A DNA stretch of 64,000 nt, from contig NZ_JARKMS010000002.1 in NCBI RefSeq assembly GCF_029350945.1, forward strand, positions 156,145-220,144, written 5' to 3'. Source of the stretch: Maribacter huludaoensis. GTDB lineage: Bacteria; Bacteroidota; Bacteroidia; Flavobacteriales; Flavobacteriaceae. The position numbers were made by a program, and so were the translations under genes. The first letter of the stretch is position 1. Every line of letters begins with the position of its first letter. Shown here piece by piece: positions 34,285-53,668 of this stretch. The notes under the pieces are model-generated. The model saw nothing but the letters and a program-made list of their open reading frames with translations, had not been told where the DNA came from and did no database searches.

Positions 34285-34323
34285 TTGGTATATTTTACCT
34301 ACTAATTAGATATTATAGAAATT

Positions 34324-35436
34324 TTACTCAAAATAATTGAAGGTAACATAACCGCCTTCTTTCAGATATTGATCCTTTTTCATTAGCTTAAGATCGTTTG
34401 TCATCATATCCTTTACTAATCCTTGTAAATCATATTCAGGAATCCAACCTAACTTCGTATTTGCCTTAGTGGCATCACCAATTAACAATTCAACCTCTGT
34501 TGGTCTAAAGTATTTAGGATCTACAGAAAGAATTTCTTTTCCTATTTCTATTTGGATTTCTGGATTTGAACATGATTTTACAAAACCTTTTTCGTCAATA
34601 CCTTCTCCTTTAAATTCAATTTCAACTCCCATTTCTGCAAATGCCATTCTTACGAATTCACGAACGGGCGTAGTTTTACCGGTAGCAATAACCCAATCTT
34701 CTGGCTCTTCTGCTTGAAGAATCATCCACATCATTCTTACATAATCTTTGGCATGGCCCCAATCTCTTTGTGCATCTAAATTACCAAGGTACATTTTGTC
34801 CTGTAAACCTAAACCTATTCTTGCAGCAGCTCTTGTAATTTTTCTGGTTACAAAAGTTTCTCCTCTAATAGGTGATTCATGATTAAAAAGAATACCGTTA
34901 CAGGCATACATGTTATATGCTTCTCTATAGTTTACGGTAATCCAATATGCGTACATTTTTGCAACTGCATAAGGACTACGTGGGTAGAACGGAGTGGTTT
35001 CTGATTGCGGTACTTCTTGTACTTTACCGTATAATTCTGATGTTGATGCTTGGTAAATACGTGTTTTTTCGGTCAAACCTAACAAACGAACGGCATCCAA
35101 TATTCTTAATGTACCTAAACCATCGGCATTACCTGTATACTCTGGTACTTCAAATGATACTTGAACGTGGCTCATGGCCGCTAAATTATAAATCTCATCT
35201 GGTTGAATTTCTTGTATCAATCTAATTAGATTAGTACTATCTGTCATATCACCATAGTGTAGTACAAAATTTCTGTGTTCAACATGAGGGTCTTGGTAAA
35301 GGTGATCAATTCTGTCCGTATTAAACAATGAAGCCCTTCTCTTAAGACCGTGTACTTGATACCCTTTTTTTAGTAAAAACTCACTCAAATAGGCGCCATC
35401 TTGACCCGTGACTCCTGTAATTAATGCTACTTTCAT
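34324..35436 (-). CDS. gmd: GDP-mannose 4,6-dehydratase
   Basis: 370 residues. [20 protein letters not shown] opens the NAD(P) site, [10 protein letters not shown] and the catalytic pair Y156/K160 in YAVAK follow, then [17 protein letters not shown] and [16 protein letters not shown], all typical of GMD. It converts GDP-mannose to GDP-4-keto-6-deoxymannose, the first step toward GDP-L-fucose. It is the first gene of the minus-strand gmd-fcl-transferase group and lies behind about 650 bases of non-coding DNA. Confidence 0.95.
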
Positions 35437-36769: not shown

Positions 36770-39700
36770 TTGGAAGTACTAACACATTTTAATCCTTTTG
36801 AAGGACCAGAGCTAAAGCATATTTTGCACACTACTGATGCGCAAGAAGAAATTTGGTATTCTTGTTATTTTGGTGGCGATGATGCAAATAAGGCTTATAA
36901 CCTGTCATTGACAATTGAGTTTGAAGGAGAACTTGATGTTTCTGCATTACAATGGTCCGTAGATATGTTAGTTAGTCGCCACGAATCGCTGAGATCGGTC
37001 TTTAGTCCAGATGGGAAGTTTATCAATGTTTTTTCATCTATCATCACCAATATTGACCTTCAGGATTTTTCTACATTACCAGCTATAGATAAAGCAGCGG
37101 CCATAGAAGAGTTTACAAAGTATGATACGGGCAAAGCTTTTGATTTGACCAAAGAACAGCTTATCCGATTTACGGTTCTAAAAACTGACAATTATAGATA
37201 TCAACTAATAATGACAACTCATCATATTGTTTGTGATGGGTGGTCTTTAGGTATTATCATGCAAGAATTAGGGGCTCTTTATTCCGCAAGAGTTAAAAAT
37301 GAACATCATAATCTCCCTGAAGCTGTTCCCTATACCGAGTATGTAACGCATCAAAATGAGGTTAAATCAAGTGCTGAATATGATCGCACAGAAAAGTATT
37401 GGTTAAACCTTTATCAAAATAACGTTCCCAAGACTAATCTTCCTATAGATTTTGAACAAATAAATAAGAGAACTTATAACGGTGCTCGTATCAATCAATT
37501 GTTAGATAAGAATATAGTGAAGGGTATTAAACAAACCGGTATAAAAGGTAATACCAGTTTGGTTCTAACGCTGATGGCCGCTTTTGAGCTATTGCTATAT
37601 AAGACCACAAAAAAGGATAGTATTGTTTTGGGTTTACCGGTTGCAGGTCAGTCATCTATGGGTGCAAAGCATTTAGTTGGTCATTGTGTAAAGTTGCTAC
37701 CAATGAAAGGCGAGTTGAATATAGACGACAGTTTTATAGATTATTTAAAGAAAAGAAAATCAGCTAATTTTGATGCCTTTGAAAATCAGGAATTGTCATT
37801 TGGTAGTTTATTAAAGAAACTAAATATTCCAAGAACACCAGGTAGAGTGCCATTGGTACCGGTAGTCTTTAATGTTGATATGGATTTGGACGATGGTGTT
37901 ACTTTTGAAGGACTATCATACCAATATCATAGTAATGCACGTGAACATGAAACGTTTGAATTATTTTTAAATGCAACAGGTTCAAATGATAATATCATTC
38001 TTGAATGGTCTTATAATACGGACTTGTTCAAAGAAAGCACAATACTTGAAATGGGCGATTCTTTCAATGCTATTTTAAGTGAACTGATAGCACGCCCCAA
38101 TGTTAAGTTGTCTGAAGTATTAAGTATTACAGATGAAAAAAGTATTTTAAACGGTACGGTATTAGATTATTCAAAAGCAACATTGCATGGCCTGTTATAT
38201 GAACAAGCTACAAATACACCCACTGCAGTTGCACTAGAATTTAAAAACGAAAAAGTAACCTATGCAGCACTTCAGCGTAAAATTAACAGTACCGCTGTTT
38301 ACTTATGGGAAAAAGGGATAAGACCTGGAGATACCGTTGCTATATCACTTGAAAGATCTCCAGATTTAATTGCCACCTTATTTGCTATATTACAATGTGG
38401 GGCACGATATGTGCCTATAGATACCGGCTACCCGGATAATCGTACTTTGTTAATGATTTCAGATGCAGAATCAACGTTCTTTATCTGTGATAGGTCAAAA
38501 CAACGATTAGGGCATAATGCTACAACTATATTTATTAAAGATATAAGGTTAAAAGCTAATGAAACAAGTGATAGTGTATTAAATATTGAAGTTACCTCTG
38601 ATGCCGCTGCGTATATCATTTATACGTCTGGGTCTACAGGAAAACCAAAGGGTGTTCAGGTTACGCATGATAATGTTGTAAACCTATTACATTCAATGGG
38701 TAAAGAGCCTGGCATTGGACCTGATGATAAAATATTTGCCACCACCACCATTTCTTTTGACGCTATGGTTATGGAGATTTTTTTACCTCTTGTTCACGGT
38801 GCAAGTGTTGTATTGGTAGATGAAGAAACCAGAAAGGATGGGCATCTTTTACTTAAAAAAGCAATAGATGATAACATAACCGTAATTTGGGGAACCCCTA
38901 CCATCTGGCAAATTTTGTTGGACTCTGGTTGGAAAAACCCATTACATATAAAAGCACTTATTGGCGGTGAACCTGTGTCTAAACCTCTTTCGTTAAAACT
39001 ATTGGAAAAGTGTGATGAAGTTTGGAATATATACGGTCCTACCGAAACAACGGTTTGCTGTATACTTACAAAAATTACGGAACAAGATGATCCTATAGCC
39101 ATAGGGAAGCCTATAGCAAATACCGAAATCTATATTCTAGATTCAAACGGTATACCTGTGAGAAACGGCGAAGTTGGAGAGATTGCAATTGGCGGTAATG
39201 GTGTAACCAACGGATATTTAGGTCAGGCAGAACTTACAAATGAGCGTTTTGTAAACAACAGTTTTTCAACTGAAGCCACTGCCAAAATGTACTTGTCCGG
39301 AGATTTAGGTAAAATTTTGTCAAACGGACAAATTGAATGTTTAGGACGTAAAGATGGTCAAGTTAAGGTTCGCGGACATCGAATAGAATTGGGCGAGATC
39401 GAACATTCTTTGGGCAAATTGAAAGGAATACAATCTGTAGCTACAGATGTTAGAAACAATGCCTTAAAAGCATATGTGGTTTATGAAGGCAACGAATGGG
39501 ACAAAGATGTTACGCTTTGGAAAAAGCAGTTAGCTGCCGATTTACCTGTTTTTATGTTGCCACATGAATATGTACAGTTAGAAAAACTACCTGTTACCCT
39601 TAATGGCAAATTAGATAGAAAAAGCCTGCCGGAAGACACAAATGTTGTGGTTGATAAGGTTGAAACTATTCAACCATTTACCAAAGCGGAAAAACTAGTT

Positions 39701-40726
39701 GCAGATGTTTGGAAGGAATGTTTGTTTTTGGACACGATTCATTTGAACGATGATTTTTTTGAACTAGGTGGGCATTCACTGATTGCTGCCAAAGTTATGA
39801 CTAGGTTAGAAGAAAAATCCGGTCAGCGATTACCATTATCTTCCTTATTTGAATATTCTACTGTTAAAAGTCTGGCAAGTCTATTAAAAATAGAAGAGAA
39901 CGTAGTTACTTGGGACTCTATGGTTCCTATACAACCTAAGGGTTCTAAAAAACCATTGTTCATTGTTCATGGATCAGGTTTAAATATATTGTCTTTTAAA
40001 ACACTTAAAGACCATATGGATCCCGATCAACCTATTTATGGTTTTCAGGCTAAGGGTTTAGACGGTAAAGAAGAATTATTGCAATCGGTCCAAGAGATTG
40101 CCGCTCATTACAATGAGTCCATAATGGCAGTTCAACCTAAAGGGCCCTATTTATTGGCCGGGTACTCGTCTGGTGGTATTATAGCTTATGAAATGGCAAA
40201 GCAACTCATGGCAAAAGGTGAAAAGATTTCATCTTTGGCACTTTTAGATACTTATGCGTATGCTCATTATGGTAAAAGCACCACCCTAGGTAAAAAGTTG
40301 GCCTATGGTAATTACTTGGCAAATAAAACCTTACATGTTCTAAGGCAATTATCAAGTAGGGAAGGTTTTAAATATAGAATAGGAGTTACAAAAACTAACC
40401 TTAAGAAATTGTACTTAAAATTAAAGAAAGGTAAAACGGAGTCGTCTAAAACCGATTATGATTGGGAGTATGAAAGCCGAATTGTTGAGCATAACAAGGT
40501 TGTAGATAAATATCATTTAAAACCAATGTCTATTAAGGTCGACTTATTTAGAATTGAGGATGTTATTGATTATACGCATGATAGTGTACATCTTGGCTGG
40601 AAATCTTTTGCGGAAAAAGGTATAGATTTACATTACGTGCCAGGAGACCACTTGAGTATGTTTAGCCCACCTAATGACAAAGTTTTAGCAACATCGCTGC
40701 AGAAAGTTATTGATAACAACCAATAA
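36770..40726 (+). CDS. NRPS, terminating module C-A-T-TE
   Basis: 1318 residues; starts at TTG (no in-frame ATG before the condensation domain). C domain, about 15-440, with intact HHIVCDG (H151, H152, D156). A domain, about 460-955, with YIIYTSGSTGKPKGV near 615, FDAMVMEIF, NIYGPTETT, GHRIELGEIE and K in NGKLDR. Reading the specificity pocket by alignment to GrsA gives D-A-M-W-I-G-I-V-C-K, which suggests a bulky hydrophobic amino acid but matches no code I know. T domain: LGGHSL, S1003. TE domain, about 1050-1318: GYSSGG with S1133, and GDH with H1294. No epimerase. Without a loading module it must receive a chain from another protein, most likely the PKS at 42139. Confidence 0.92.
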   Translation: MEVLTHFNPFEGPELKHILHTTDAQEEIWYSCYFGGDDANKAYNLSLTIEFEGELDVSALQWSVDMLVSRHESLRSVFSPDGKFINVFSSIITNIDLQDFSTLPAIDKAAAIEEFTKYDTGKAFDLTKEQLIRFTVLKTDNYRYQLIMTTHHIVCDGWSLGIIMQELGALYSARVKNEHHNLPEAVPYTEYVTHQNEVKSSAEYDRTEKYWLNLYQNNVPKTNLPIDFEQINKRTYNGARINQLLDKNIVKGIKQTGIKGNTSLVLTLMAAFELLLYKTTKKDSIVLGLPVAGQSSMGAKHLVGHCVKLLPMKGELNIDDSFIDYLKKRKSANFDAFENQELSFGSLLKKLNIPRTPGRVPLVPVVFNVDMDLDDGVTFEGLSYQYHSNAREHETFELFLNATGSNDNIILEWSYNTDLFKESTILEMGDSFNAILSELIARPNVKLSEVLSITDEKSILNGTVLDYSKATLHGLLYEQATNTPTAVALEFKNEKVTYAALQRKINSTAVYLWEKGIRPGDTVAISLERSPDLIATLFAILQCGARYVPIDTGYPDNRTLLMISDAESTFFICDRSKQRLGHNATTIFIKDIRLKANETSDSVLNIEVTSDAAAYIIYTSGSTGKPKGVQVTHDNVVNLLHSMGKEPGIGPDDKIFATTTISFDAMVMEIFLPLVHGASVVLVDEETRKDGHLLLKKAIDDNITVIWGTPTIWQILLDSGWKNPLHIKALIGGEPVSKPLSLKLLEKCDEVWNIYGPTETTVCCILTKITEQDDPIAIGKPIANTEIYILDSNGIPVRNGEVGEIAIGGNGVTNGYLGQAELTNERFVNNSFSTEATAKMYLSGDLGKILSNGQIECLGRKDGQVKVRGHRIELGEIEHSLGKLKGIQSVATDVRNNALKAYVVYEGNEWDKDVTLWKKQLAADLPVFMLPHEYVQLEKLPVTLNGKLDRKSLPEDTNVVVDKVETIQPFTKAEKLVADVWKECLFLDTIHLNDDFFELGGHSLIAAKVMTRLEEKSGQRLPLSSLFEYSTVKSLASLLKIEENVVTWDSMVPIQPKGSKKPLFIVHGSGLNILSFKTLKDHMDPDQPIYGFQAKGLDGKEELLQSVQEIAAHYNESIMAVQPKGPYLLAGYSSGGIIAYEMAKQLMAKGEKISSLALLDTYAYAHYGKSTTLGKKLAYGNYLANKTLHVLRQLSSREGFKYRIGVTKTNLKKLYLKLKKGKTESSKTDYDWEYESRIVEHNKVVDKYHLKPMSIKVDLFRIEDVIDYTHDSVHLGWKSFAEKGIDLHYVPGDHLSMFSPPNDKVLATSLQKVIDNNQ

Positions 40727-40728
40727 AC

Positions 40729-41610
40729 TTAATGCTGGGCCGTAACAGCTTTACGGTTAGATAATTCACTTGCAGTTATGGCACTGTAATTATCAGCGGC
40801 CATATACCTTAAGTAAAAATCTGTACCGCTATCTTTTGTGGTATTATGCCATAAATGAAAGCCTGCAGTTTTGAACAAGGCTTCATAGTTATGTGAAAAT
40901 GAGCGCTCATAACCATAGGGCTGAGATGATTTGTTGGTCTGTAGGTCGTGATGTATACCGTTAGGTTCAATAGCTACAAATGTTGTTTTGCCCAGGTTGT
41001 TCAGTTTATTGAAAAAATCTAGAAGTTTTGGTTCCGTAAAATATTCCAGTACACCTCTAGAGGTTACAAATATCATATTTTCGGTAGCATGGGTATTTAC
41101 CCAATCAAAAGCATCAGAGGCTATGAACTCTAGTTTTGTGTTAGATACATAAGTATTTTTGTTCATTGAAATTTGTTGTTGGCTTAGATCTATACCCACA
41201 AATCTTTCAATGTCCGGAAATTTTGTACTTAAATAATTTAATACTTTTCCATTGCCGCATCCTATTTCTACTATGGTATGAAAATTATGTTGCTCCATTG
41301 ACAATTTAAGCTCCAATAAATCGAATAAAAAAGTGCATTCCGGTAGAAAAGATTTTTCAAAAGAATCATCGTTCTCAAGGAAATATTTGGCACCCTTTTT
41401 TTTCCAAAATGCTTTATGAAACTCTGAAAGTTGATTATAATTTTGTTCTTCTTCTGCTTTCTTTAAAAGAGATTTACGCATAAAAAGTTCAATGAAACTA
41501 ATAGATTTTTTATCGGTAATTGTCATGCCATTGTTCGCCATTTTTTTAGCTTTCTTAGGCAGTAAGGCTAAGAGCAAATTCCCTATAAATATTACAATTC
41601 TATTTTTCAT
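40729..41610 (-). CDS. SAM-dependent methyltransferase, class I
   Basis: 293 residues. Motif I is TIVEIGCGNG at residues 112-121 with the acidic ribose-binding residue at D141 in VGIDLSQQQ; IASDAFDW fits motif II. The first 30 residues are hydrophobic then basic (IVIFIGNLLLALLPKKAKK), as in membrane-associated enzymes. It is convergent with the NRPS gene with two bases between the stops, and divergent from the PKS gene. It may methylate the product, a precursor or a surface glycan; sequence does not decide. Acceptor unknown. Confidence 0.8.
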   Translation of the reverse strand: MKNRIVIFIGNLLLALLPKKAKKMANNGMTITDKKSISFIELFMRKSLLKKAEEEQNYNQLSEFHKAFWKKKGAKYFLENDDSFEKSFLPECTFLFDLLELKLSMEQHNFHTIVEIGCGNGKVLNYLSTKFPDIERFVGIDLSQQQISMNKNTYVSNTKLEFIASDAFDWVNTHATENMIFVTSRGVLEYFTEPKLLDFFNKLNNLGKTTFVAIEPNGIHHDLQTNKSSQPYGYERSFSHNYEALFKTAGFHLWHNTTKDSGTDFYLRYMAADNYSAITASELSNRKAVTAQH

Positions 41611-42138
41611 ATTAAGTCAAAAATGTAATCGGTATACAATATTAAATATTTTGTCGAATACATTTTTAAAACCTTTCGGATAAATGTTATTATTTCTTAG
41701 GCCAATGGTCGAAGAAATATGTTGATGAACCCTATAATTATGCTCTTATTTTCTGTTCTAGTTACAGTTTCGAAGAACGTTAATTTTTTCTCGATGAAAT
41801 TTCAACGAAGCAAAAAAAAAAATATCTCAATGAATATATTATATTTTAATCGTAAAACATTGAAATACAATATATTATATTTTTAGGTTTTGTTGCTAAG
41901 GAGTTTTGGTTTTAATGCTAGAAGTTAAATTGTTTATGATATTCTGTAATTTTACTTCATTGTTTATTTGCATTATTTGTTCGGAAATTTTACTGAGATG
42001 TATTTAGGAACCAGTGTTAAATTGAAATTTTTGTTTAATAATTAAGTTATCCCAACAGCGTCTTTAGAATGTAATTGTTATTCCTGAACAAATTTGTAAA
42101 TATCAATCCCAAAATCTATACCTAATTATTGTTTTGTA
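41611..42138. other. Divergent regulatory region of methyltransferase and hybrid PKS
   Basis: 528 AT-rich bases without a gene, including an A-rich run near 41811-41824. It carries two copies of AATATATTATATTTT (41833-41847 and 41869-41883), 36 bases apart, each preceded by a TGAATA- or TGAAATAC-like lead. Equal spacing of just over three helical turns would place them on nearly the same DNA face. Confidence 0.45.
41833..41883. repeat. Pair of 15-base direct repeats upstream of the PKS gene
   Basis: AATATATTATATTTT occurs twice, period 36 bases. The upstream flanks are also similar (TCAATG / ACATTG). In a divergent promoter region this arrangement is typical of tandem regulator sites, but low-complexity AT sequence could give it by chance. 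Confidence 0.45.
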
Positions 42139-45100
42139 ATGAAAGCCAAAAAAGAAAATGTAATTACTGATTCTACTAAAGCATATTGGAAGAAAATTTT
42201 ATTGGATGATGTAAAATTACTAGACTTGCCCAGTAGAAAGCTTGCCGCAAAGGATGGCGTTCGGCAAGGGTCTTTGTTGCGCACCTACTTCTCTGCTGAG
42301 GTGACTTCTGAAATAAAGGCTTATACTGCTTCTGGTAGTATTGAATCTTTTTTAATTACTGCATTAGGTGTTCTGCTACAGAGGTATACAAATCAATTGG
42401 ATATTGCTTTTGGTTTAAGTATAGATGATGAAACAGTATCCCTATTTAGAAATACTGTTGATCCTACCGTAGATTTTAATACGTTAAATAAACAAACAAA
42501 AAGCATACTACAATTAAACAAAGCAAATCCATATCCTACGGATAAATTTGTTGAAGATTTCAACCTTGTAAACGAGAACGGTGAAAACGCACTTTTAGAT
42601 TTTGTACTTTCTATAAATTCATTGAAGAATGAAGCTGAAATCACAAATGATAGTAGTGATACCAGTACTATTGAATTTATAGGTAATGTTGATTCTTTGT
42701 CAAATATTAAGGTTTTATTAGCTTGTTCTAATGAGCATCTAAAATTAGAAGTAGTTTTCAACGAAAATGTTTTTGAGAAAAATGTTATCGAGCAGTTCAT
42801 GGTGCACTTTAAGAATGTAGTGCCAAAATTAATTGAGCGGCCATCTATACCTGTAGGAAGTATAGACGTTCTTCTAGATAAAGAACGAGATACGGTCATG
42901 AATGATTTCAATTCGCCTTATGTAGAATACCCTAAGGGAAAAACAATTGTTGATTTATTAAATAAACAGGTTAAAAAAACACCGAATAGGACTGCTGTAG
43001 TTTATGAAGATAGAAGTTTAACATACAATGAACTGCATCAGCTATCAAATAGGTTCGCAGATTATTTAATAAAGAAAAAGGGAGCGGTAAAAGGTAATTT
43101 GGCCTGCCTTATTTTAGATAGAAGTGAATGGCTTATTATAAGCATGGTAGGTATCATGAAGGCCGGTGCTGCATATGTGCCCGTAGACCCTAACTATCCT
43201 GCTTCACGAAAAAAATATATAAAAGAAGATAGTAATTGCGATTTTACCGTAGACGCAGCAGCAATAGCAGAGTTCAAGGCAACAATCGATAATTATAGTA
43301 TAGCTGAAATTACAACGGTGGACTTAAGTCCTACTGATTTAATATATATTATATATACCTCAGGTACCACGGGCAAACCAAAAGGTGTAATGTTAGAACA
43401 TACTAATATCGTTAGTCTGTTCGTGCATGATAATCCAATATTCGATTTTAATGAAACTGACGTTTGGACCATGTTCCACTCTTATTGTTTTGATTTTTCG
43501 GTTTGGGAAATTTATGGAGCGCTGCTTTTCGGAGGAAAGTTAGTTATTCCTTCTAGTTCGGTCATTAAAGATCCTTTTGAATTCATGTCTTTAGTGATCA
43601 AAGAAAAAGTTACCGTCCTTAGTCAAACACCTTCTTCTTTTTTAAATATTATGGGCAGCTTGCCCGAAGGTGATGTTGACCTAAAATTAAGATATGTCAT
43701 TTTTGGTGGAGAGTCTTTATTTCCTAAATATTTGAAGAAATGGCACGAACGGTTTCCTGCTATACAATTTGTAAATGGATATGGCATTACCGAGACCACC
43801 GTTTTTGTAACCTTTAAAATGATAGATGATGAGGATATAAGAACCAATGTTTCTAATATTGGTAATTGTATACCTACGTTATCCGCTTTTGTTGTAAACG
43901 GTCAAGATCAATTACAACCTATTGGTGTTATTGGAGAATTGTGTGTTTCTGGCTATGGTCTTGCACGCGGGTATTTGAACAGACCAGAACTTAGCGAGCA
44001 AAAGTTTGCCGTTAATCCTTTTTTACAAGGCGAGAAAATGTATCGTTCTGGTGATTTGGTGAGATTGCTGCCCGATGGTAATTTTGAATTCGTTGGTAGA
44101 ATTGATCACCAGGTGAAAATACGTGGTCACCGAGTAGAGCTCGGTGAAATTGAATCTACCTTAAATGAAATTTCTGGTGTAAACAGGGCTGTTGTATTGG
44201 CGAATACAAATAAGGATGGTGAAACTAGGTTGGTGGCTTATTTGCAGGCCAATGGAGAGAAACCAACTGTAGGTACTTTAAAATTAGCTCTTGAGGAGAA
44301 ATTGCCTGTATTTATGGTACCTGCTTTTTTTATGTGGGTAGATGAATTTCCTACCAATGCCAATGACAAAATTGATAAAAGTAAATTACCTGAACCTTCT
44401 TATGAAAGATCTAGTTCAGATGTAATTTTCAGAAAACCAAGAACCAAGCTTGAACAAAGTATAGCTGGTATTTGGGAAAAGGAATTAAGTATATCCGGGA
44501 TAGGTTTAGATGATAATTTCTTTGAAATGGGTGGTACGTCACTCATGGCCCAGAAAGTTGCAAACGCTATAATGAAAACCGCGGGTATTCGTATACCTGT
44601 TACCAAGTTGTACCAGTACACCACAATAGCAACTCTTTGTTTATTTCTAGATAATAAGAACGAGAACGAGCCATTAACATTCAAATACAAAAAGAAAGAT
44701 GTCAGTACATCTAAAGATGTAGCGATCATTGCTATGTCTGGTAGATTTCCGGGAGCTAATAATATTGATGAGTTTTGGGATGTTTTGAAAAATGGAAGGG
44801 AAACTATATCATTTTTCTCTCCAGAAGAATTAGATCAAAGTATTCCAGAAGCAACGCGAAAAGATCCTTTATATGTTGCCGCAAGAGGTATTGTACCGTC
44901 AGCGAAAACATTTGACGCACGTTTTTTTGGACTTACGCCAAAATTTGCCGAAGCAATGGATCCTCAGCAACGTCTATTTTTAGAATTAGCTTGGGAAGTT
45001 CTAGAAGAATCCGGGCACTTGCCTGAGCATTATAAGGGTAGGGTAGGTGTGTATGCCGGTACGGGTACCAACACCTATTATAAAAAGAACATATTGCCTA

Positions 45101-48100
45101 ATAGTGAAGTTGTAGAAACTATTGGTCAATTGCAGTTGGATACCGCAAATGAAAAAGATTATATAGCATCAAGAACGGCATATCAATTAGATTTAAAAGG
45201 TCCGGCGGTAAGTGTACATTCCGCTTGTTCTACATCGTTATTGGCAATTGCCGAGGCAGTAGAGGCTATACGTAACGGACAATGTGAAATTGCTGTTGCT
45301 GGTGGGTCTAGTATTACCGCACCAATGAACAGCGGTCATTTGTATCAAGAAGGTTCTATGCTGAGTACAGATGGTCATTGTAGACCTTTTGATTCGCAGG
45401 CAAGGGGTACCGTTTTTAGTGATGGTGCAGGAGCTATAATATTAAAAGATCTAGAAGAGGCCAAAAAAGATGGCGATATTATTTACGGCATTGTAAAAGG
45501 TGTTGGTATTAATAATGACGGCGGTCACAAAGGTAGCTTTACGGCTCCTAGTGCAGAAGGTCAGGCGAATGCAATTGCAGCGGCTATTAACGATGCCAAT
45601 ATTTCACCAGATACGATCAGTTACATAGAAACACACGGTACGGCGACACCATTGGGTGATCCTATTGAGATAGATGGATTAAACCTTGCCTTTGGAGAAC
45701 AGGAGAAGCAGAATTTCTGCGGAATAGGTTCCGTAAAAAGTAATATGGGGCATTTGACCGCCGCCGCAGGTGTAACCGGATTGATAAAAACCATTTTGGC
45801 TTTTAACCATAAAGTAATACCACCTTCTTTAGGTTTTGATAAACCTAATCCTGAAATAGACTTTGAAAACAGTCCGTTTTATGTCAATAATACCTTGACG
45901 GATTGGAATGTGGAGGGAGTTAGAAGAGCCGGTGTAAGTTCGTTCGGCGTAGGTGGTACCAATGTGCATGTTGTAGTAGAGGAGTATGAAATGGAGCAAA
46001 AGACTTCAAAATTTCAACGTCCATTGCAATTATTGCCAATTTCAGCAAAGACAGAGACCAGTTTAGCGGGATTTGAAACTGCACTTAAAAGTCATATGGA
46101 TGCTAAGCAAGAATTAAATTTGGCAGATGTTGCATATACTTTAAGTACCACGAAAGCTAGTTTCAATAATCGCAGATTTATTTTAGCCGATGATACAAAA
46201 GTAGCTACTGATGTTTTATTGGATAAGGATATAAAGGCTACACAATCTTCAGTTGTAAAAATTGTACCTAGTGAAATCGCATTTCTACTTCCAGGTCAAG
46301 GTTCCCAATATTTAAATATGGGCAAGGACCTATATGATGAGGAAAGCACCTTTAGGGAGGCTGTGGATATCTGTGCCAATATATTGTTAGATATTATCAA
46401 GGTAGATATAAGGGAAATTATCTTTCAGGATAAAACTTCTGAAGAAGCGGAGAATAGGCTAAAGGATACCCGTTATACACAACCTGCCCTATTTACAATT
46501 GAATATGCGCTTTCACAATTATGGATGAGTTGGGGAATACGCCCCACGGTATTATGCGGACATAGTCTAGGGGAATTTGTAGGTGCTCATTTAGCTGATA
46601 TTTTCAGTTTAGAAGATGCTTTAAAACTGGTTTCTATGAGAGGTATTCTGGTTAGCGGACTTCCAAAGGGGAGTATGCTGACCGTAAGAATCGATGAAGA
46701 AACTCTGGAAAAATTAATTCCGAAGACATTGTCAATAGCTGCCGTAAATTCTGCAAAACTTTGCGTGGTGTCAGGTGAGGATGATGAAATAACCAAATTC
46801 AGTGAGCTTTTAAAAGAACAGGGGCTACCATACCGCTTAATAGCTACAAGTCACGCTTTTCATTCCTCTATGATGAACCCAATTTTAGAGGAATTTGGGG
46901 ATGTGGTAAAGAATATCAAATTAAATGTTCCTCAAATACCAATAATATCGACCGTTACAGGTACTTGGCTTACTAATGAAGAAGCCGTAGATGCCGTATA
47001 CTGGACAAACCATTTAAGAGATACCGTAAGATTTTCCGATGCTATGGATACCCTGGTGAAATTAGAAGATGTGGTATTGCTAGAAGTTGGTCCCGGTAAC
47101 ACGCTTACAACTTTAAGTCGCCAGAACAAAGGCGCAAAAAATATAAAATCCTTGGCTTCTTTGCCGTTACCTAAGAATGATGAGAATTCATTTTATGGCA
47201 TATTGAAAGCTTTAGGTCAAATTTGGCTAACCGGTCTTTCGGTAGATTGGAATGCCTTTTACAAAAACCAAGAAAGGCAAAAACTAAGATTACCAACGTA
47301 TGTTTTTGACCGTAAACCATGCTGGATCGATCCTGTGGTCTCTGTTCCTAAAGAAAGAGCCTATTTGAATGGCGATCAGTCTTTAATTAAAACAATAGAA
47401 AAACCAAAAAGTGCCGCACCAATGAGAAACGTCTCTATATTAAATAAGATTTCAGAGTTAATTTCAAATTCATACGGAATTGATATTGAAGCAACGGACA
47501 AGGACAGTAGCTTTTTAGAATTAGGATTAGATTCTTTGATTCTAACTCAGATGGCCATTACCTGTAAAAAAGAATTTAAGATTCCAATTACATTTCGTCA
47601 GTTGAACGAAGACATAAACACACCAGAGCTTTTGGCTAATTACTTGGATCAGAACTTACCGGCAGATGTTATGGCGCCACAACCAATTGCCGAGGCAGCT
47701 CCTCAGCCGGTTGCCGCCGTTAACCATGTGCAACAAGCTATGCCTGCCAATTTTAATACTTCTGCAACCAATCAAACGGCCATTGGCCTAATAGGCGAGC
47801 AGCTTAATTTATTGAGTAGACAGCTTCAGTTGTTACAGGGTAATACGGTAACCCCAGCTCCACAACCTGTTGCCGTTCAAAAGCCTGTTCCGGCAAAAGA
47901 GGTTAAACCGGTAATGAATTTGGATTCACTTTCGGAACAAGAAAAATTGGAACATAAAAAGCCTTTTGGGGCTTCGCCAAAAATTGAGAGACAATCCACT
48001 GGTTTAGATCAGGCCCAATCGCAATACTTAAAGGAACTTACGGAAAAGTACAATGCCAAAACTATTGGCAGTAAAAATTACGCTCAAGACAATAGAGCTA

Positions 48101-49512
48101 AAATGGCAGATCCTAGAGTAGTATCAGGATTTAAGCCATTAACTAAAGAATTAGTGTATCCGGTAGTAATCGGTAAATCTACAGGTAACCGACTGTGGGA
48201 TGTAGATGGTAATGAATATATAGATGCCTTGAACGGTTTTGGTTCTTGCTTTTTTGGTTATCAACCAGATTTCATAAAGAAAGCGATGCACGATCAAATT
48301 GAATTAGGGTATGAGGTAGGTCCTCAACATCCATTGGCGGGCGAAGTTTGTGATCTTTTATGTGAGTTTACCGGTCATGACAGGGCCGCTTTGTGTAATA
48401 CCGGTTCAGAAGCGGTTCTTGGAGCTATGAGAATTGCCCGTACGGTTACAGGGCGTTCACTTATTGTAGCATTTACCGGTGCTTACCATGGTATTAACGA
48501 TGAGGGAATTGTAAGGGGGTCTCAAAAGAAAAAGACTTTTCCGGCTGCAGCAGGTATTATGCCAGAAGCTGTGCAGAACATGTTGATTTTAGATTATGGT
48601 ACCGACGAAAGTTTGCAGATTATAAAGGATAGAGCCCATGAAATTGCGGGAGTGCTAATAGAACCCGTTCAAAGTCGTAGACCGGAGTTTCAGCCTATAG
48701 AATTTATAAAGAACGTAAGAGAGGTAACAAGTAAAGAAGGGATTGCCTTTATTTTTGATGAGGTGATCACCGGCTTTAGAATGCACCCTGGTGGAGCACA
48801 GGCGTTGTTCAATGTAAAGGCAGATTTAGCTACCTATGGTAAAGTTATGGGCGGTGGAGTTTCCATTGGTGCCATTGTAGGTAAAAAAGAGTTTATGGAT
48901 GCGCTTGATGGCGGTTTTTGGCAATATGGTGATGATTCGTATCCTGAAGTAGGGGTAACTTATTTTGCAGGTACTTTTGTACGTCACCCATTGGCTTTGG
49001 CTTCCTCAAAAGCTTCTTTGTTATATATGAAAGAGCAAGGTCCAAGTCTGCAGGCAAATATATCCGCTATGACAGAACGCATGGCCAAAAGCTTGAACGA
49101 TACATTTACGAAAGAAGGTCTACCCATAGAGATTACTTATTTTGGTTCGTTATGGAGATTAAAGTTCAAGAAAGACATTCCGTATTCAGAATTGCTTTTT
49201 GTTAGCATGCGTGAAAAAGGTATTCATATTTGGGACGGTTTCCCTTGTTTCTTGACCACTGCATATACTAGTGATGATGTTGATTTCTTAATGAAAACCT
49301 TATTGTCTTCTGTAAATGAATTGGTAGCCGTAGGTATACTTTCTAAAGAGGGGGTAAACGGTAATCATGTTACAAACACAAAATCGTCTTTTGAAAAATT
49401 AAATACACCACCGGTTCCTGGTGCGCGTTTGGGTAGAGATGAAAAAGGGCAACCTGCTTGGTATGTTGAAGATGCTAGTCAAGAAAGCGGATACTTAAAA
49501 ATCGATATCTAA
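42139..49512 (+). CDS. Hybrid NRPS-PKS: half-C, A, T, KS, AT, T, aminotransferase
   Basis: 2457 residues. Residues 1-255 match only the C-terminal half of a condensation domain and lack HHxxxDG. A domain (about 260-755): YIIYTSGTTGKPKGV near 400, FDFSVWEIY, NGYGITETT, GHRVELGEIE and K in NDKIDK; pocket reading D-F-W-S-I-G-G-V-F-K, near the threonine code DFWNIGMVHK. T1: MGGTSL, S800. KS (about 859-1285): C1030 in HSACSTSL, H1166, H1205. AT: LPGQGSQ, S1476 in GHSLGE and HAFH at 1572-1575, a malonyl-CoA signature. T2: LGLDSL, S1799. A Pro/Gln/Ala linker leads to a class III PLP aminotransferase (about 1990-2420) with D2207 and K2235, as in iturin/mycosubtilin synthases. No KR, DH or ER. The protein loads an amino acid, extends it with malonate and transaminates the beta-ketone. 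Confidence 0.93.
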   Translation: MKAKKENVITDSTKAYWKKILLDDVKLLDLPSRKLAAKDGVRQGSLLRTYFSAEVTSEIKAYTASGSIESFLITALGVLLQRYTNQLDIAFGLSIDDETVSLFRNTVDPTVDFNTLNKQTKSILQLNKANPYPTDKFVEDFNLVNENGENALLDFVLSINSLKNEAEITNDSSDTSTIEFIGNVDSLSNIKVLLACSNEHLKLEVVFNENVFEKNVIEQFMVHFKNVVPKLIERPSIPVGSIDVLLDKERDTVMNDFNSPYVEYPKGKTIVDLLNKQVKKTPNRTAVVYEDRSLTYNELHQLSNRFADYLIKKKGAVKGNLACLILDRSEWLIISMVGIMKAGAAYVPVDPNYPASRKKYIKEDSNCDFTVDAAAIAEFKATIDNYSIAEITTVDLSPTDLIYIIYTSGTTGKPKGVMLEHTNIVSLFVHDNPIFDFNETDVWTMFHSYCFDFSVWEIYGALLFGGKLVIPSSSVIKDPFEFMSLVIKEKVTVLSQTPSSFLNIMGSLPEGDVDLKLRYVIFGGESLFPKYLKKWHERFPAIQFVNGYGITETTVFVTFKMIDDEDIRTNVSNIGNCIPTLSAFVVNGQDQLQPIGVIGELCVSGYGLARGYLNRPELSEQKFAVNPFLQGEKMYRSGDLVRLLPDGNFEFVGRIDHQVKIRGHRVELGEIESTLNEISGVNRAVVLANTNKDGETRLVAYLQANGEKPTVGTLKLALEEKLPVFMVPAFFMWVDEFPTNANDKIDKSKLPEPSYERSSSDVIFRKPRTKLEQSIAGIWEKELSISGIGLDDNFFEMGGTSLMAQKVANAIMKTAGIRIPVTKLYQYTTIATLCLFLDNKNENEPLTFKYKKKDVSTSKDVAIIAMSGRFPGANNIDEFWDVLKNGRETISFFSPEELDQSIPEATRKDPLYVAARGIVPSAKTFDARFFGLTPKFAEAMDPQQRLFLELAWEVLEESGHLPEHYKGRVGVYAGTGTNTYYKKNILPNSEVVETIGQLQLDTANEKDYIASRTAYQLDLKGPAVSVHSACSTSLLAIAEAVEAIRNGQCEIAVAGGSSITAPMNSGHLYQEGSMLSTDGHCRPFDSQARGTVFSDGAGAIILKDLEEAKKDGDIIYGIVKGVGINNDGGHKGSFTAPSAEGQANAIAAAINDANISPDTISYIETHGTATPLGDPIEIDGLNLAFGEQEKQNFCGIGSVKSNMGHLTAAAGVTGLIKTILAFNHKVIPPSLGFDKPNPEIDFENSPFYVNNTLTDWNVEGVRRAGVSSFGVGGTNVHVVVEEYEMEQKTSKFQRPLQLLPISAKTETSLAGFETALKSHMDAKQELNLADVAYTLSTTKASFNNRRFILADDTKVATDVLLDKDIKATQSSVVKIVPSEIAFLLPGQGSQYLNMGKDLYDEESTFREAVDICANILLDIIKVDIREIIFQDKTSEEAENRLKDTRYTQPALFTIEYALSQLWMSWGIRPTVLCGHSLGEFVGAHLADIFSLEDALKLVSMRGILVSGLPKGSMLTVRIDEETLEKLIPKTLSIAAVNSAKLCVVSGEDDEITKFSELLKEQGLPYRLIATSHAFHSSMMNPILEEFGDVVKNIKLNVPQIPIISTVTGTWLTNEEAVDAVYWTNHLRDTVRFSDAMDTLVKLEDVVLLEVGPGNTLTTLSRQNKGAKNIKSLASLPLPKNDENSFYGILKALGQIWLTGLSVDWNAFYKNQERQKLRLPTYVFDRKPCWIDPVVSVPKERAYLNGDQSLIKTIEKPKSAAPMRNVSILNKISELISNSYGIDIEATDKDSSFLELGLDSLILTQMAITCKKEFKIPITFRQLNEDINTPELLANYLDQNLPADVMAPQPIAEAAPQPVAAVNHVQQAMPANFNTSATNQTAIGLIGEQLNLLSRQLQLLQGNTVTPAPQPVAVQKPVPAKEVKPVMNLDSLSEQEKLEHKKPFGASPKIERQSTGLDQAQSQYLKELTEKYNAKTIGSKNYAQDNRAKMADPRVVSGFKPLTKELVYPVVIGKSTGNRLWDVDGNEYIDALNGFGSCFFGYQPDFIKKAMHDQIELGYEVGPQHPLAGEVCDLLCEFTGHDRAALCNTGSEAVLGAMRIARTVTGRSLIVAFTGAYHGINDEGIVRGSQKKKTFPAAAGIMPEAVQNMLILDYGTDESLQIIKDRAHEIAGVLIEPVQSRRPEFQPIEFIKNVREVTSKEGIAFIFDEVITGFRMHPGGAQALFNVKADLATYGKVMGGGVSIGAIVGKKEFMDALDGGFWQYGDDSYPEVGVTYFAGTFVRHPLALASSKASLLYMKEQGPSLQANISAMTERMAKSLNDTFTKEGLPIEITYFGSLWRLKFKKDIPYSELLFVSMREKGIHIWDGFPCFLTTAYTSDDVDFLMKTLLSSVNELVAVGILSKEGVNGNHVTNTKSSFEKLNTPPVPGARLGRDEKGQPAWYVEDASQESGYLKIDI

Positions 49513-49551
49513 AGAACAGAAAAGGTTTTAAACTTAGCAATGACCGTTTAA

Positions 49552-50244
49552 ATGACATATTTACTGTTTACTAATTTAACCGATGAAAAAAACGATTCTT
49601 TTTTTGTTGAGGCTCGGCTTTGTTTTTCGGAGGAATTTGTAACTAAGTTTGAAAAGTATAAACGTTGGCAAGATGCAAAATCTACCATATTGGGAAGATT
49701 GCTTTTGGCATACGGATTAAAGAATTTATATCAAATAGATATAGACGACCTCCAAATGAATTTTACAAAGGATAAAAAACCCTTTATAGAAAATTCGGCT
49801 ATCAAATTCAACATATCACACTCCAATGATGTAATTGTTTGCGCAATTACATCTGTAGGTGAGGTAGGTGTAGATGTGGAGAAGATCAATGATGTAAATA
49901 TCCAAGATTTTAAAGGTCAATTTTCGAAGGTAGAATATGATGCTATAATAAATTCATCAAATGAACTGCAACAGTTTTATACGTATTGGACCCAAAAAGA
50001 AGCTGTTGTAAAATGTTATGGGTCTGGCTTGAATATACCTTTAGATTCTTTTGAAATAATAGATAATGTTACTGTGGTAGACAAACAACGCTATTATGTA
50101 AAGGAGTCTATTTTAGGTACTGCATACAAGTGTCATACGGCCACCAACACTTATTTATCTGATGATAAAATGGAGATAATTAAAATCGGTTCATCAAATT
50201 TATCGGATTTTATGTCGTTATACAGTTTCAGGTCTTTTAAATAA
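49552..50244 (+). CDS. Sfp-type 4'-phosphopantetheinyl transferase
   Basis: 230 residues, full length for the two-domain Sfp type. FNISHS at 87-92, GVDVE with D108 and E110, and the WTQKEA motif with W146, K149 and E150 are all in place. The enzyme transfers phosphopantetheine from CoA to the serines of carrier domains. It lies 39 bases behind the hybrid synthase on the same strand and is the obvious activator of the three T domains in the two synthases. Confidence 0.93.
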   Translation: MTYLLFTNLTDEKNDSFFVEARLCFSEEFVTKFEKYKRWQDAKSTILGRLLLAYGLKNLYQIDIDDLQMNFTKDKKPFIENSAIKFNISHSNDVIVCAITSVGEVGVDVEKINDVNIQDFKGQFSKVEYDAIINSSNELQQFYTYWTQKEAVVKCYGSGLNIPLDSFEIIDNVTVVDKQRYYVKESILGTAYKCHTATNTYLSDDKMEIIKIGSSNLSDFMSLYSFRSFK

Positions 50245-50294
50245 TGGCGGTAAACATCGCGTTTGGCCGTTAAAGTGTTCTCTGCTTAATTTAA

Positions 50295-50329: not shown

Positions 50330-50446
50330 TTTATTACGACGATTTTATAAACTAGAATATCGGAATAAAGATGAAACAGGTTTTTGTTTAAATTAATTTT
50401 GAAGTTCACTATGAACATTAACTAAAAGCTACAAATTATTTATTTT

Positions 50447-51238
50447 ATGAAAGCTGTATTCTCCCAAATTAACCTAAAAAGAACAAAAGCCAATCTGCTT
50501 AAATTTTCTTTGCTACTGGTAGTTGCATTACAAATTACATCGTGTGGCAGTGCTAAAAAATCATCTTACTTTAATGAGGTGGGCAACAACTCGTTCGCAA
50601 CTTATTTTGAGCCTTTAGAGCCTATTTTGCAAAAGAACGATTTGTTAAGTATAAATATAACCAGTTTAAATGCAGAAGTAACAGAGATGTTCAATCTTGC
50701 CAATAAATCTGGAGGAGCACAACCTACAGGATATTTAATAGATCAAGACGGGTACATACGTTTTCCAGTTTTGGGTAAAATAGAAGTATCTGGGTTGACC
50801 AAAAAAGAACTGAGAGAATATATTAGAGGTGAGTTGATTTCTAAAAAATTATTAATGGAGCCAATTGTGGATATCCGTTTTATGAACTTTAAAGTTTCTG
50901 TATTGGGAGAGGTAAATCAGCCTGCTGTATTTACAATCCCTAATGAGAAAGTAACTTTATTGGAAGCTTTAGGTATGGCCGGTGATATGACGATTTATGC
51001 ACAACGCAACAATGTGTTGCTGATCAGCGAAGAAGATGGTATTAAAAGCACCAAGAGAATAGATTTGACTTCAGACGAATTATTTACCTCACCTAACTAT
51101 TATCTAAAACCAAATGATATTGTGTACGTGCAGCCAAACGATAGAAAGGTTAGAAACACCTCTAATGCTGCCCAATGGTTTTCTGTAATACTAGGCTCTT
51201 TATCATTGGCGGTAATCTCTATTTCTACTTTTAAGTAA
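50447..51238 (+). CDS. Polysaccharide export lipoprotein, Wza-like (locus B)
   Basis: 263 residues. Lipoprotein signal KFSLLLVVALQITSC, then GSAKKSSYF. The export domain has LQKNDLLSINITSLNAEV and GYLIDQDGYIRFPVLGKIEV; the SLBB-type part has VSVLGEVNQPAVFTIPNEK. It closely resembles the locus A protein at 8096, including the last hydrophobic helix (VILGSLSLAVISISTF). It starts a second complete export/polymerisation set. A TAATTTTG lies at 50394-50401, which could be a -7 box, but no -33 box fits. Confidence 0.9.
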   Translation: MKAVFSQINLKRTKANLLKFSLLLVVALQITSCGSAKKSSYFNEVGNNSFATYFEPLEPILQKNDLLSINITSLNAEVTEMFNLANKSGGAQPTGYLIDQDGYIRFPVLGKIEVSGLTKKELREYIRGELISKKLLMEPIVDIRFMNFKVSVLGEVNQPAVFTIPNEKVTLLEALGMAGDMTIYAQRNNVLLISEEDGIKSTKRIDLTSDELFTSPNYYLKPNDIVYVQPNDRKVRNTSNAAQWFSVILGSLSLAVISISTFK

Positions 51239-51349
51239 ACGTAACAATATATGCCAATAAAAAACAGTTTACTTAAAACTTAAGTTCCTGGAGCCAATTT
51301 AAATTGGTTATAGGTACTGTAGCTTAATTACCTTATAAAATTGAATGTA

Positions 51350-53668
51350 ATGACCGAAAAGGAATATTTCGATTCACAACTATCTTCTAAAGAAAATGAA
51401 GAAAATTTTGATTTGAAAGCACTATTTAGCAAATACCTTAAATCATGGAAGTTGTTCTTAATTTCCTTGATTGTTTTCTTGACATTGGCAATTCTTGCTT
51501 TGCAGTTTGTGAATACCTCATATGAGGTAACCAGCAAAATACTTTTGAATAACGAAACCTCTAATATTGATGCCTCTGGTAACAACCTGGTAAACAATAA
51601 TCCGTTTAGTAATTCAGAAAAAGTAAACAATGAAATTGAAGTACTTACTTCTGTACATTTAATGCGCTCCGTATTGGACAGTTTGTCATTGCAGGGTAAA
51701 GTAATGACTCCGGATGTTTTTCCGGAAACAGAATTGTACGGGTCTCAATTGCCTTTCAAAATTGTGGTAGACACGTTGTTTCCATTAGCATATGACACCA
51801 CTTTAAAGATTAAAATTGAAGGTAGCGATAGCTTTAGTGTTTCCGAAGAGTTTGAAGATGCCGGGGATGTTTTAAGTTCTACAAGTTCATCTTATGGTTT
51901 TAACAAATACAATTATGGTTATAAGATTGAAAAACCATATGGTAACTTCCATTTAGTGGCAAATAACAAGTCAGTCTCAACAGCTAAAGAATTTGTAGTT
52001 GAATTTAGGGATATTGATGAGCTGGCACACGATTATGTTAAAAAAGCTTTGAACGTATATGTTGTAAATAAAGATGCTTCAGTTATAAACATCGTGTTAA
52101 AAGAATCAAATCCTGAAAAAGGTGAGGACATTATCAACGGTTTGGTTGAAATGTACGGGTATAAAGCGTTTTTAGAAAAAAATGCCATTGCATTAGAAAA
52201 TGTAAAATTTATAGATAATCGTTTAAACAGCCTTTCTGCAGAACTTAGTGAAGTAGAAATGAACGTAGCTCAGTTTAAAACAGAGAATGAGCTCGCCAAT
52301 GTTGAATTGGATGCAAATTCTTTTTCTGAACAAGAAATTGATTATGATCGCAAATTGGCAGATTCTGAAATTGAATTGAAAGTATTGAGTTCAATTGAAC
52401 GTAATTTAAAAAGGGGAGATAATGAGTCTACTATCAACTCTTTAAATGTATCTAGTTCTAACCTAACGTATTTAATAGATAGTTATAACAAGTTACAGAT
52501 AGATAGAAAAAGGTTGCAACGAACAGTGCCGGAAAACAACCCGAGAATGGTTGATATTAGAGATCAATTGGCACAATTAAAGCGTAATATTCTAGGTAGC
52601 CTTTCTACTTCTAAGCAAAGTTTGCGTACAACCATTGCCAGTATCAAGAACAGGTCTGATGAATTTGCGGAGAAAAAACAGAGGATACCGTCAATGCAAC
52701 GTCAATTGCTTGAAATTAGTAGAGAACAGGGAATAAAGGAAAATTTGTTTTTATACCTACTTCAAAAGCGAGAGGAAGCTGCTTTAATGGTTGGCGCCAA
52801 ACAAGATAATTTTACTGTAATAGATAAAGCCATTACGGATTATGAGTCTGGTTCTTCAAGTAAAAAATTATATGTGCTAATAGCTTTATTGATGGCTCTT
52901 GCGTTACCAATAGGTATCATTCATTTAAAAGATATTTTAAATACCAAAGTAAAGGGTGCCAAAGATATTGAGAAAAGAACAAGTGTACCGGTTATAGGTG
53001 AAATTGCACATAATAATTCTAGAAAAAACTTAATAGAAAAAGGGGAGGAAGTAAGTGCCTTGGCAAAAGGTTTTAGAATGATGAGAATGAACTTGGACTT
53101 TATTTTGTCGAAAAAGAAAGTGCAGACCGTTTTGGTTACCTCTGCAATAAAAGGTGAGGGAAAAACATTTTTCTCTTCTAATATGGGTGTAGCATTGGCA
53201 TCATCAAGTTCTAAAGTGGTGATTTTGGAATTGGATAAACATAACCCGGAACTTATTGAAACCTTAGGGGAGACAAAAAGGGAATTTGGTGTTACCAATT
53301 ACCTTAATCAACCCTATAATACCATTACCGTAAATGATCTTTTAATTCCGGTTAGTGGAAATGCCAATTTATTTGCTATTGGTTTAGGAAATGAAAAAAT
53401 AGATGGCCTGGAGTCTTTTGGCTCTAAGAAAATGGAAGAGTTAATGGAACAGTTAAGAAAAGAGTTCGATTATATCCTAATTGATTCGTCACCTATAAAA
53501 ACATTGGCAGATACCCTTGCATTATCAAAGTACACGGATTGTTGCCTTTATATGGTAAGGTCTGGACATTCTAAGCTAGAAGATTTAAGTATTATAGAAG
53601 ATGTTAGAACCAACAAAAAATTCAAGAACCCAATGGTAGTAATGAATGATGTTAGTTCTAATAAATAG
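51350..53668 (+). CDS. Wzc-like co-polymerase with atypical kinase domain (locus B)
   Basis: 772 residues from the ATG at 51350 (a TTG nine bases before is less likely). Two membrane helices flank a Wzz/coiled-coil periplasmic part. Walker A is intact (SAIKGEGKT, K605) and Walker B is YILIDSSP, but Walker A' reads VVILELDKHNPEL where BY-kinases usually have a D-x-D-x-R pattern. The C-terminus ends MVVMNDVSSNK with no tyrosine cluster, unlike the locus A copy. It may therefore be a weak or non-autophosphorylating kinase, or depend on a partner. The chain-length role should be retained. Confidence 0.88.
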   Translation: MTEKEYFDSQLSSKENEENFDLKALFSKYLKSWKLFLISLIVFLTLAILALQFVNTSYEVTSKILLNNETSNIDASGNNLVNNNPFSNSEKVNNEIEVLTSVHLMRSVLDSLSLQGKVMTPDVFPETELYGSQLPFKIVVDTLFPLAYDTTLKIKIEGSDSFSVSEEFEDAGDVLSSTSSSYGFNKYNYGYKIEKPYGNFHLVANNKSVSTAKEFVVEFRDIDELAHDYVKKALNVYVVNKDASVINIVLKESNPEKGEDIINGLVEMYGYKAFLEKNAIALENVKFIDNRLNSLSAELSEVEMNVAQFKTENELANVELDANSFSEQEIDYDRKLADSEIELKVLSSIERNLKRGDNESTINSLNVSSSNLTYLIDSYNKLQIDRKRLQRTVPENNPRMVDIRDQLAQLKRNILGSLSTSKQSLRTTIASIKNRSDEFAEKKQRIPSMQRQLLEISREQGIKENLFLYLLQKREEAALMVGAKQDNFTVIDKAITDYESGSSSKKLYVLIALLMALALPIGIIHLKDILNTKVKGAKDIEKRTSVPVIGEIAHNNSRKNLIEKGEEVSALAKGFRMMRMNLDFILSKKKVQTVLVTSAIKGEGKTFFSSNMGVALASSSSKVVILELDKHNPELIETLGETKREFGVTNYLNQPYNTITVNDLLIPVSGNANLFAIGLGNEKIDGLESFGSKKMEELMEQLRKEFDYILIDSSPIKTLADTLALSKYTDCCLYMVRSGHSKLEDLSIIEDVRTNKKFKNPMVVMNDVSSNK

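What the first reader, a model, noticed from the sequence alone, without database searches (positions are those of the whole stretch)
36770..50244. Compact hybrid NRPS-PKS-aminotransferase system predicted to make a vicinal-diamine dipeptide
Two synthases carry all parts for a short line: A-T loads an amino acid; KS-AT(malonyl)-T extends it once; no KR is present, and an aminotransferase follows; then C-A-T-TE adds one amino acid and releases. Known AMT domains of the iturin/mycosubtilin type convert a beta-ketoacyl thioester to a beta-amino one. Applied to an aminoacyl starter this gives a 3,4-diamino acid linked to a second amino acid. I know of no described flavobacterial system of this form. 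A dedicated PPTase is included and a methyltransferase lies between.
Basis: partly seen in the sequence, partly recalled or inferred. Interest (0 to 1): 0.88.

Follow-up and report, generated by a model that had tools for sequence, protein, structure and literature searches.

The report
Amino-acid-started PKS-aminotransferase-NRPS cluster in Maribacter
A small bacterial assembly line probably joins an amino acid, a two-carbon unit and a second amino acid and adds an extra nitrogen next to the first, giving an unusual diamine dipeptide whose structure I could not find described.

Summary
Window 42139-49512 encodes partial C-A-T-KS-AT-T-aminotransferase (AMT) and 36770-40726 encodes C-A-T-TE, with a methyltransferase between and a PPTase behind; no KR is found. 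The catalytic residues checked in the PKS-AMT are conserved in 41 of 41 aligned rows. The proposed order (PKS-AMT, then C-A-T-TE) is backed by gene order in 17 of 17 unbroken type II loci with both genes in view and by one relative that encodes the whole line as a single 3437-residue protein. A 3,4-diaminoacyl dipeptide is the best prediction, but no product is shown and the amino acids are guesses. It is not unique: homologues occur in 18 of 36 genomes of the genus (probably Maribacter) and 14 of 237 sampled genera of the family, own genus counted. The layout was catalogued in Pedobacter heparinus in 2013. New here: varied starter pockets, the natural fusion, and a fixed place beside an exopolysaccharide export operon in the 12 type I genomes, both sides seen in 10. 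A link to surface polysaccharide is possible but unproven.

The parts
36770..40726 (+). NRPS P1 (1318 aa, TTG start): C-A-T-TE
36827..38140 (+). P1 condensation domain, intact HHIVCDG (His152, Asp156)
38198..39220 (+). P1 adenylation domain A2, printed code DAMWIGIVCK; hydrophobic residue guessed
39698..39886 (+). P1 carrier domain (Ser1003)
39953..40666 (+). P1 thioesterase domain, GYSSGG (Ser1133)
40729..41610 (-). class I SAM methyltransferase (293 aa); present in 7 of 10 type I loci in view
42139..49512 (+). hybrid synthase P3 (2457 aa): partial C-A-T-KS-AT-T-AMT
42172..42891 (+). truncated C-terminal part of a condensation domain, without HHxxxDG
42961..44370 (+). starter adenylation domain A1, printed code DFWSIGGVFK (near the recalled Thr code DFWNIGMVHK)
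44458..44646 (+). carrier domain T1 (Ser801)
44713..45837 (+). ketosynthase (Cys1030, His1166, His1205)
46282..47238 (+). acyltransferase, GHSLGE (Ser1476) and HAFH (malonyl type, recalled)
47434..47607 (+). carrier domain T2 (Ser1799)
48157..49230 (+). class III aminotransferase (AMT), PLP lysine Lys2235, Asp2207
49339..49509 (+). C-terminal linker after AMT; in one relative (G569) the next domain in the same chain is C
49552..50244 (+). 4'-phosphopantetheinyl transferase (230 aa)
50447..53668 (+). neighbours: Poly_export (wza-like) and Wzz/AAA (wzc-like) genes, same strand as the synthases; linked context, not part of the assembly line
33193..35436 (-). neighbours on the left: two genes that I label GDP-fucose synthase-like and GDP-mannose dehydratase-like from recall; no family search was run on them

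Best explanation
A two-protein hybrid assembly line. Shown by sequence: A1-T1 of P3 has the marks of a domain pair that selects and holds an alpha-amino acid; KS-AT-T2 is equipped to extend it once with a malonyl-type unit; no KR is present to reduce the ketone; a MycA-type AMT follows; P1 (C-A2-T-TE) carries one more amino-acid module and a thioesterase. Inferred: KS gives a 4-amino-3-oxoacyl-T2 thioester; the AMT, charged by an amine donor (Gln in MycA), turns the 3-keto into a 3-amine; P1 condenses the resulting 3,4-diaminoacyl chain with the second amino acid; TE releases the dipeptide, free or cyclised. The methyltransferase probably methylates an intermediate or the product. The PPTase probably arms the carrier domains.
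For: Domain content and absence of KR. Catalytic residues conserved in 41 of 41 PKS-AMT rows and C-domain residues in 39 of 39 NRPS rows (rows are not independent). The AMT falls on the PKS-linked AMT side of a tree, split from HemL proteins at 100/100, and has the extra 12-residue loop that Milano et al. describe. Asp in the amino-binding position of 33 of 33 readable starter A domains. PKS-AMT then NRPS on one strand in 17 of 17 unbroken type II loci with both genes in view and in 11 of 13 loci of the phylum set; of the other two, one (G569) is a single 3437-aa A-T-KS-AT-T-AMT-C-A-T-TE protein. The window genome has 7 AMP-binding matches, only two in proteins of NRPS size, P1 and P3, so they have no other obvious partner. 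Purifying selection. Four relatives carry a methyltransferase domain inside an NRPS module (L076, L083, L179, L182), so methylation recurs.
Against: No product, expression or enzyme assay. PKS-AMT genes without an adjacent NRPS occur in L028, L077 and L173. Pfam finds no TE in the NRPS of L029 and L080, and the TE serine column is a gap in L086. The stand-alone MT is absent from 3 of 10 type I loci and unmatched in 13 of 13 loci of the phylum set (L172 holds little upstream sequence). The free 4-amine could close to a five-membered lactam or tetramate before or after the AMT step. Substrate codes rest on recalled positions.
Confidence: 0.62

Rival explanations
1. The AMT acts like its relative HemL: on a 4-amino-3-oxo substrate it swaps the two groups (1,2-amino transposition) through the vicinal diamine, giving a 3-amino-4-oxoacyl chain without any outside amine donor.
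For: The AMT is HemL-related, and the predicted substrate is an alpha-amino ketone like the HemL substrate, whose pathway runs through a vicinal diamine (established knowledge, recalled).
Against: The AMT lies with PKS-linked AMTs, not HemL, and has their extra loop. Several relatives have starter codes that look Pro-like (L037, L040, L041, L063, L071, L073, L085; reading recalled), and a ring nitrogen could not be exchanged this way.
Confidence: 0.13
2. The amine of the starter attacks the thioester, so the line releases a tetramate or a 4-aminopyrrolidinone, and P1 adds its amino acid to a ring or not at all.
For: A free 4-amine and a thioester at C1 are placed for a five-membered ring (chemical inference).
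Against: The C-domain His and Asp are kept in 39 of 39 NRPS rows, and C is fused to the AMT in G569, which suggests that an open chain is passed on.
Confidence: 0.13
3. The two synthases do not work together, or one is inactive.
For: They are separate genes with an opposite-strand gene between them in the window; three PKS-AMT loci have no adjacent NRPS.
Against: Colinear order, fusion, joint presence and dN/dS below 0.15 for both.
Confidence: 0.05

Closest known systems
Pedobacter heparinus protein C6XWU5 (Milano et al. 2013, PMC3870968, Table 2)
   Same: A-CP-KS-AT-CP-PLP1 layout, Bacteroidota, predicted Nrp-Mal-Gly-Pk product
   Different: Listed from a database scan with no product; I compared other Pedobacter loci (49-50% identity to P3 for L071, L073, L085), not this protein itself
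MycA of mycosubtilin (AMT structure 6kfm)
   Same: Homologous AMT (402 bits); [quoted passage not shown]
   Different: MycA starts from a fatty acid and feeds a longer lipopeptide line (recalled); here the starter looks like an amino acid and one NRPS module ends in TE
Salinisphaera shabanensis F7QBN5 (same table)
   Same: C-A-CP-KS-AT-CP-PLP1-C-HxxPF-A-CP order, predicted Gly-Mal-Nrp
   Different: Single chain, other phylum, product unknown in that table
Aureusimine synthetase AusA
   Same: Small NRPS that makes dipeptide-derived products (recalled); NCBIfam matches at 573 and 517 bits
   Different: Far below the 2500-bit cut-off; no KS, AT or AMT in that family (recalled)

Membership tests
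MycA-type AMT hybrid PKS-NRPS | Aminotran_3 domain directly after a PKS carrier domain | tested here: met
   (PF00202 at 2007-2364, carrier Ser1799)
MycA-type AMT hybrid PKS-NRPS | AMT groups with PKS-linked AMTs rather than HemL | tested here: met
   MycA itself was not a row of the tree, compared only
MycA-type AMT hybrid PKS-NRPS | C domain takes the chain from the AMT module | tested here: inconclusive
   in the window C is on another protein; supported by the fusion in G569 and gene order, not by interaction data
MycA-type AMT hybrid PKS-NRPS | beta-keto to beta-amino transfer shown on the carrier protein | not testable with these tools
   needs an enzyme assay
Iturin-family lipopeptide synthetases | fatty acyl-AMP ligase starter | tested here: not met
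   A1 matches the amino-acid adenylation model TIGR01733 above cut-off (409.5 vs 317.4 bits) and has Asp at the amino-binding position
Iturin-family lipopeptide synthetases | heptapeptide line | tested here: not met
   one NRPS module in P1, no further NRPS-size A domain in the genome
A-CP-KS-AT-CP-PLP1 family of Milano et al. | that domain order | tested here: met
   the window protein has an extra partial C at the N-terminus
Glutamate-1-semialdehyde aminomutase (HemL) | reaches the equivalog cut-off | tested here: not met
   229.7 bits against 527.3

The most novel reading that the evidence does not exclude
The line makes a cationic vicinal-diamine dipeptide (or its methylated form) that works with, or is attached to, the exopolysaccharide made by the operon beside it: an NRPS-PKS used to build a surface-polymer substituent or a matrix cross-linker rather than a diffusible antibiotic. 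In the 12 type I genomes the PKS-AMT lies a few kilobases from the same wza-like gene, in the 10 with both sides held it lies between GDP-sugar genes (label recalled) and that operon, and in G019 the synthases and that operon are missing together. Common descent alone could also explain this.
Probability: 0.12. Interest if true: 0.82.

Novelty: new variant of a known kind. Interest (0 to 1): 0.5.

Why it matters
Characterised AMT hybrids of the MycA type that I know of start from fatty acids (recalled). This orphan family looks built to start from amino acids, with several different pockets, so it would be a natural platform for 3,4-diamino acids, which are useful building blocks and metal ligands. 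It is compact (two synthases, about 3,800 residues) and exists in one relative as a single protein, so the question whether an AMT accepts an aminoacyl-derived ketide can be tested directly. Its fixed place beside an exopolysaccharide operon opens a second question, whether such lines can serve surface polymers.

Tried and rejected
Uniqueness to this window: rejected; relatives occur in Flavobacteriaceae, Sphingobacteriaceae, Spirosoma and Betaproteobacteria. Mobile-element origin: no tRNA in the window; I did not search for transposases. Operon structure from promoter and terminator scans: no more sites than shuffles gave (54 vs 63.6, 10 vs 9.5), so nothing was concluded. Copper linkage: copper genes flank the Spirosoma plasmid and Variovorax loci; among the window neighbours run through Pfam the only copper name was a below-cut-off NosD match in a beta-helix protein (58218-59672); left as a note. 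General exopolysaccharide linkage outside the genus: weak. Many loci lie among unrelated genes. Type II loci of the genus: 0 of 6 within 20 kb, 5 of 6 within 50 kb. PF02397 was searched in 31 genomes but not used in a count. Literature for a known product or a polysaccharide link: searches showed none in the listings (several listings were capped, e.g. 6 of 2,473, 10 of 34, 15 of 33); only five papers were opened; subscription journals are mostly absent from that library. A search for the PDB codes of the nearest KS-AT structure gave one unrelated paper. Substrate prediction: the automatic code table is shifted at the fifth letter for part of the rows, so amino-acid readings are low confidence. 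Structure prediction and fold search were not used.

Full report
What is there. The window holds four genes that fit the finding: P1 (36770-40726, +, 1318 aa), a methyltransferase (40729-41610, -, 293 aa), P3 (42139-49512, +, 2457 aa) and a PPTase (49552-50244, +, 230 aa). Pfam gives P1 as C-A-T-TE and P3 as partial C-A-T-KS-AT-T-Aminotran_3; no KR is found. The partial C covers only profile positions 193-453 and has no HHxxxDG. A 19.9-kb stretch of that genome is 83.9% identical over its length to Maribacter zhoushanensis, so the genus is probably Maribacter.

Are the parts intact? In an alignment of 41 PKS-AMT rows, the carrier serines, KS Cys-His-His, AT Ser and His, and AMT Asp and Lys are the same in 41 of 41; in 39 NRPS rows the C-domain His and Asp are the same in 39, the carrier Ser in 38 and the TE Ser in 32. 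The rows include ten type I copies, two of them from one species, so they are not independent; some are cut by the end of the fetched stretch. dN/dS between the window and three relatives is 0.066-0.122 for P1, 0.086-0.108 for P3, 0.079-0.143 for MT and 0.198-0.815 for the PPTase, the last from very few changes; dS exceeds 1 in several pairs.

What the AMT is. Its best solved relative is mycosubtilin AMT (402 bits), ahead of HemL-type aminomutases (162 bits or less). In a 53-row tree the window AMT lies among PKS-linked AMTs, split from HemL proteins at 100/100; within that side, Bacteroidota and Pseudomonadota (mainly betaproteobacterial) rows form a 95/95 group. The alignment with HemL shows a 12-residue insertion, which Milano et al. 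give as a mark of the embedded Aminotran_3 domains (PMC3870968, passages). The same paper states that MycA takes its amine from Gln (passage).

Order of the line. In the window P1 precedes P3, with the methyltransferase on the other strand between them. Relatives settle the order. In 17 of 17 unbroken type II loci of the family with both genes in view (L037-L041, L058-L069; several cut at one end), the PKS-AMT gene is followed by the NRPS gene on the same strand. In L063 a Cupin_8/JmjC gene lies between, and L065 has a similar-looking gene there that was not searched. L042 is broken into fragments and L070 shows only the PKS; these two were left out. In the phylum set 11 of 13 loci show the same order, L173 has the PKS alone, and in L184 (G569) both are one protein of 3437 aa, A-T-KS-AT-T-AMT-C-A-T-TE. 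Also against: PKS-AMT without an adjacent NRPS in L028 and L077. The window genome's 7 AMP-binding matches include only two in synthetase-size proteins, P1 and P3.

Substrates. The first letter of the A-domain code is Asp in 33 of 33 readable starter A domains of 41 (8 rows are cut off or were missed), which fits alpha-amino acids (the rule is recalled). Among 10 type I rows the starter prints DFWSIGGVFK in 3, the window included, and DFWNIGGIFK in 7, near the recalled Thr code; A2 prints DAMWIGIVCK in all 10. Of 38 NRPS rows read (one of 39 missed), 14 print DILQ, the recalled start of the Gly code. Starters elsewhere look Pro-like, Gly-like or unassigned. The fifth letter is uncertain in part of the rows. 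So the amino acids are guesses; the variety of starter pockets is a firmer result.

Tailoring. The methyltransferase is present in 7 of 10 type I loci in view and in all 6 type II loci of the genus, and near the synthases in 5 of 5 loci of other genera where that side is held (L059, L063, L066, L067, L069), but no homologue was matched in the 13 loci of the phylum set. Four relatives carry a methyltransferase domain within an NRPS module instead (L076, L083, L179, L182), the usual place of N-methylation domains (recalled). The site of methylation here is unknown; the NCBIfam hits of the window gene are all below cut-off.

Distribution. T-AMT homologues: 18 of 36 genomes of the genus, 12 at 81-100% (type I, window included) and 6 at 64-67% (type II); 15 of 397 family genomes and 14 of 237 genera at E 1e-120, own genus counted; 15 of 395 phylum genomes and 10 of 171 genera at E 1e-140, two of these genomes below 50% identity. 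The tree puts the type I rows with rows of two other genera rather than with type II rows of the same genus (96/87), so the genus may have gained the system more than once.

Setting. The 12 genomes with a close copy (88% or more) of the neighbouring Poly_export gene are the 12 type I carriers. In the 10 with both sides held, the order is GDP-sugar genes (label recalled), P1, P3, PPTase, wza-like, wzc-like; in G021 and G025 the contig shows only the wza side. In G019 the GDP-sugar genes remain (93% and 90%), no synthase or close wza match is found in the genome, and a fragment similar to a WecG-family window gene (72% over 61 aa) follows. A second strain of the species has no mismatch in the flanks at 34000-35500 and 51000-53000 but up to 59 per 500 bases inside the cluster, as if the cluster is exchanged as a unit. 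Outside the genus the linkage is weak (figures in Tried and rejected), though homologues of window polysaccharide genes border L058, L060, L068 and L178. Common descent alone could explain the fixed place in the genus.

Known or new. Milano et al. 2013 list A-CP-KS-AT-CP-PLP1 in Pedobacter heparinus with predicted Nrp-Mal-Gly-Pk and related orders in Salinisphaera and Thiorhodococcus (section 7 read). Four further papers were seen in passages only: PMC10734526 and PMC12181424 count NRPS-PKS hybrids in Flavobacteriaceae and Pedobacter, PMC10233909 and PMC13101523 count biosynthetic clusters in marine bacteria; none of the passages describes this line. Nine searches of the open library showed no product in their listings (see Tried and rejected). 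I therefore file it as a variant of AMT hybrid synthases with an amino-acid starter, product unknown.

Verdict. Shown: domains, residues, order, conservation. Inferred: substrates, diamine, release form, methylation, role.

Noticed in passing
window 35500-50500 against L044: A strain of the same species is identical in the flanks but differs by up to 59 of 500 bases inside the synthase cluster, as if the cluster is swapped between strains.
   Followed up: partly
window 6711-29389: A second polysaccharide region: sugar transferase, export gene, Wzy-like, MBOAT acyltransferase, glycosyltransferases, GT10 fucosyltransferase-like.
   Followed up: no
L028 and L029: Copper genes flank the PKS-AMT on a Spirosoma plasmid and lie near the Variovorax plasmid locus; a diamine product could bind copper, untested.
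   Followed up: no
L038-L042: A protein of about 370 aa lies near the type II cluster (shorter frame in L042); the L039 copy is GNAT/FemAB-like, the others were judged alike by their first residues. Such proteins can transfer amino acids to polymers (recalled).
   Followed up: partly
L042 (G012:C1:1336000-1355900): The type II cluster reads in many short frames in this 81% complete genome; sequencing error and decay were not told apart.
   Followed up: no
L037, L059, L067, L072, L074: A similar-looking membrane protein of about 265 aa lies near the methyltransferase; the L067 copy has no Pfam or NCBIfam match.
   Followed up: partly
window 35943-36335: A 130-aa frame with no Pfam match, similar in two relatives at 65% and 99%.
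   Followed up: no
window 49552-50244: The PPTase diverges faster (52-64% identity in 8 of 9 type I relatives) than the synthases it should serve.
   Followed up: partly
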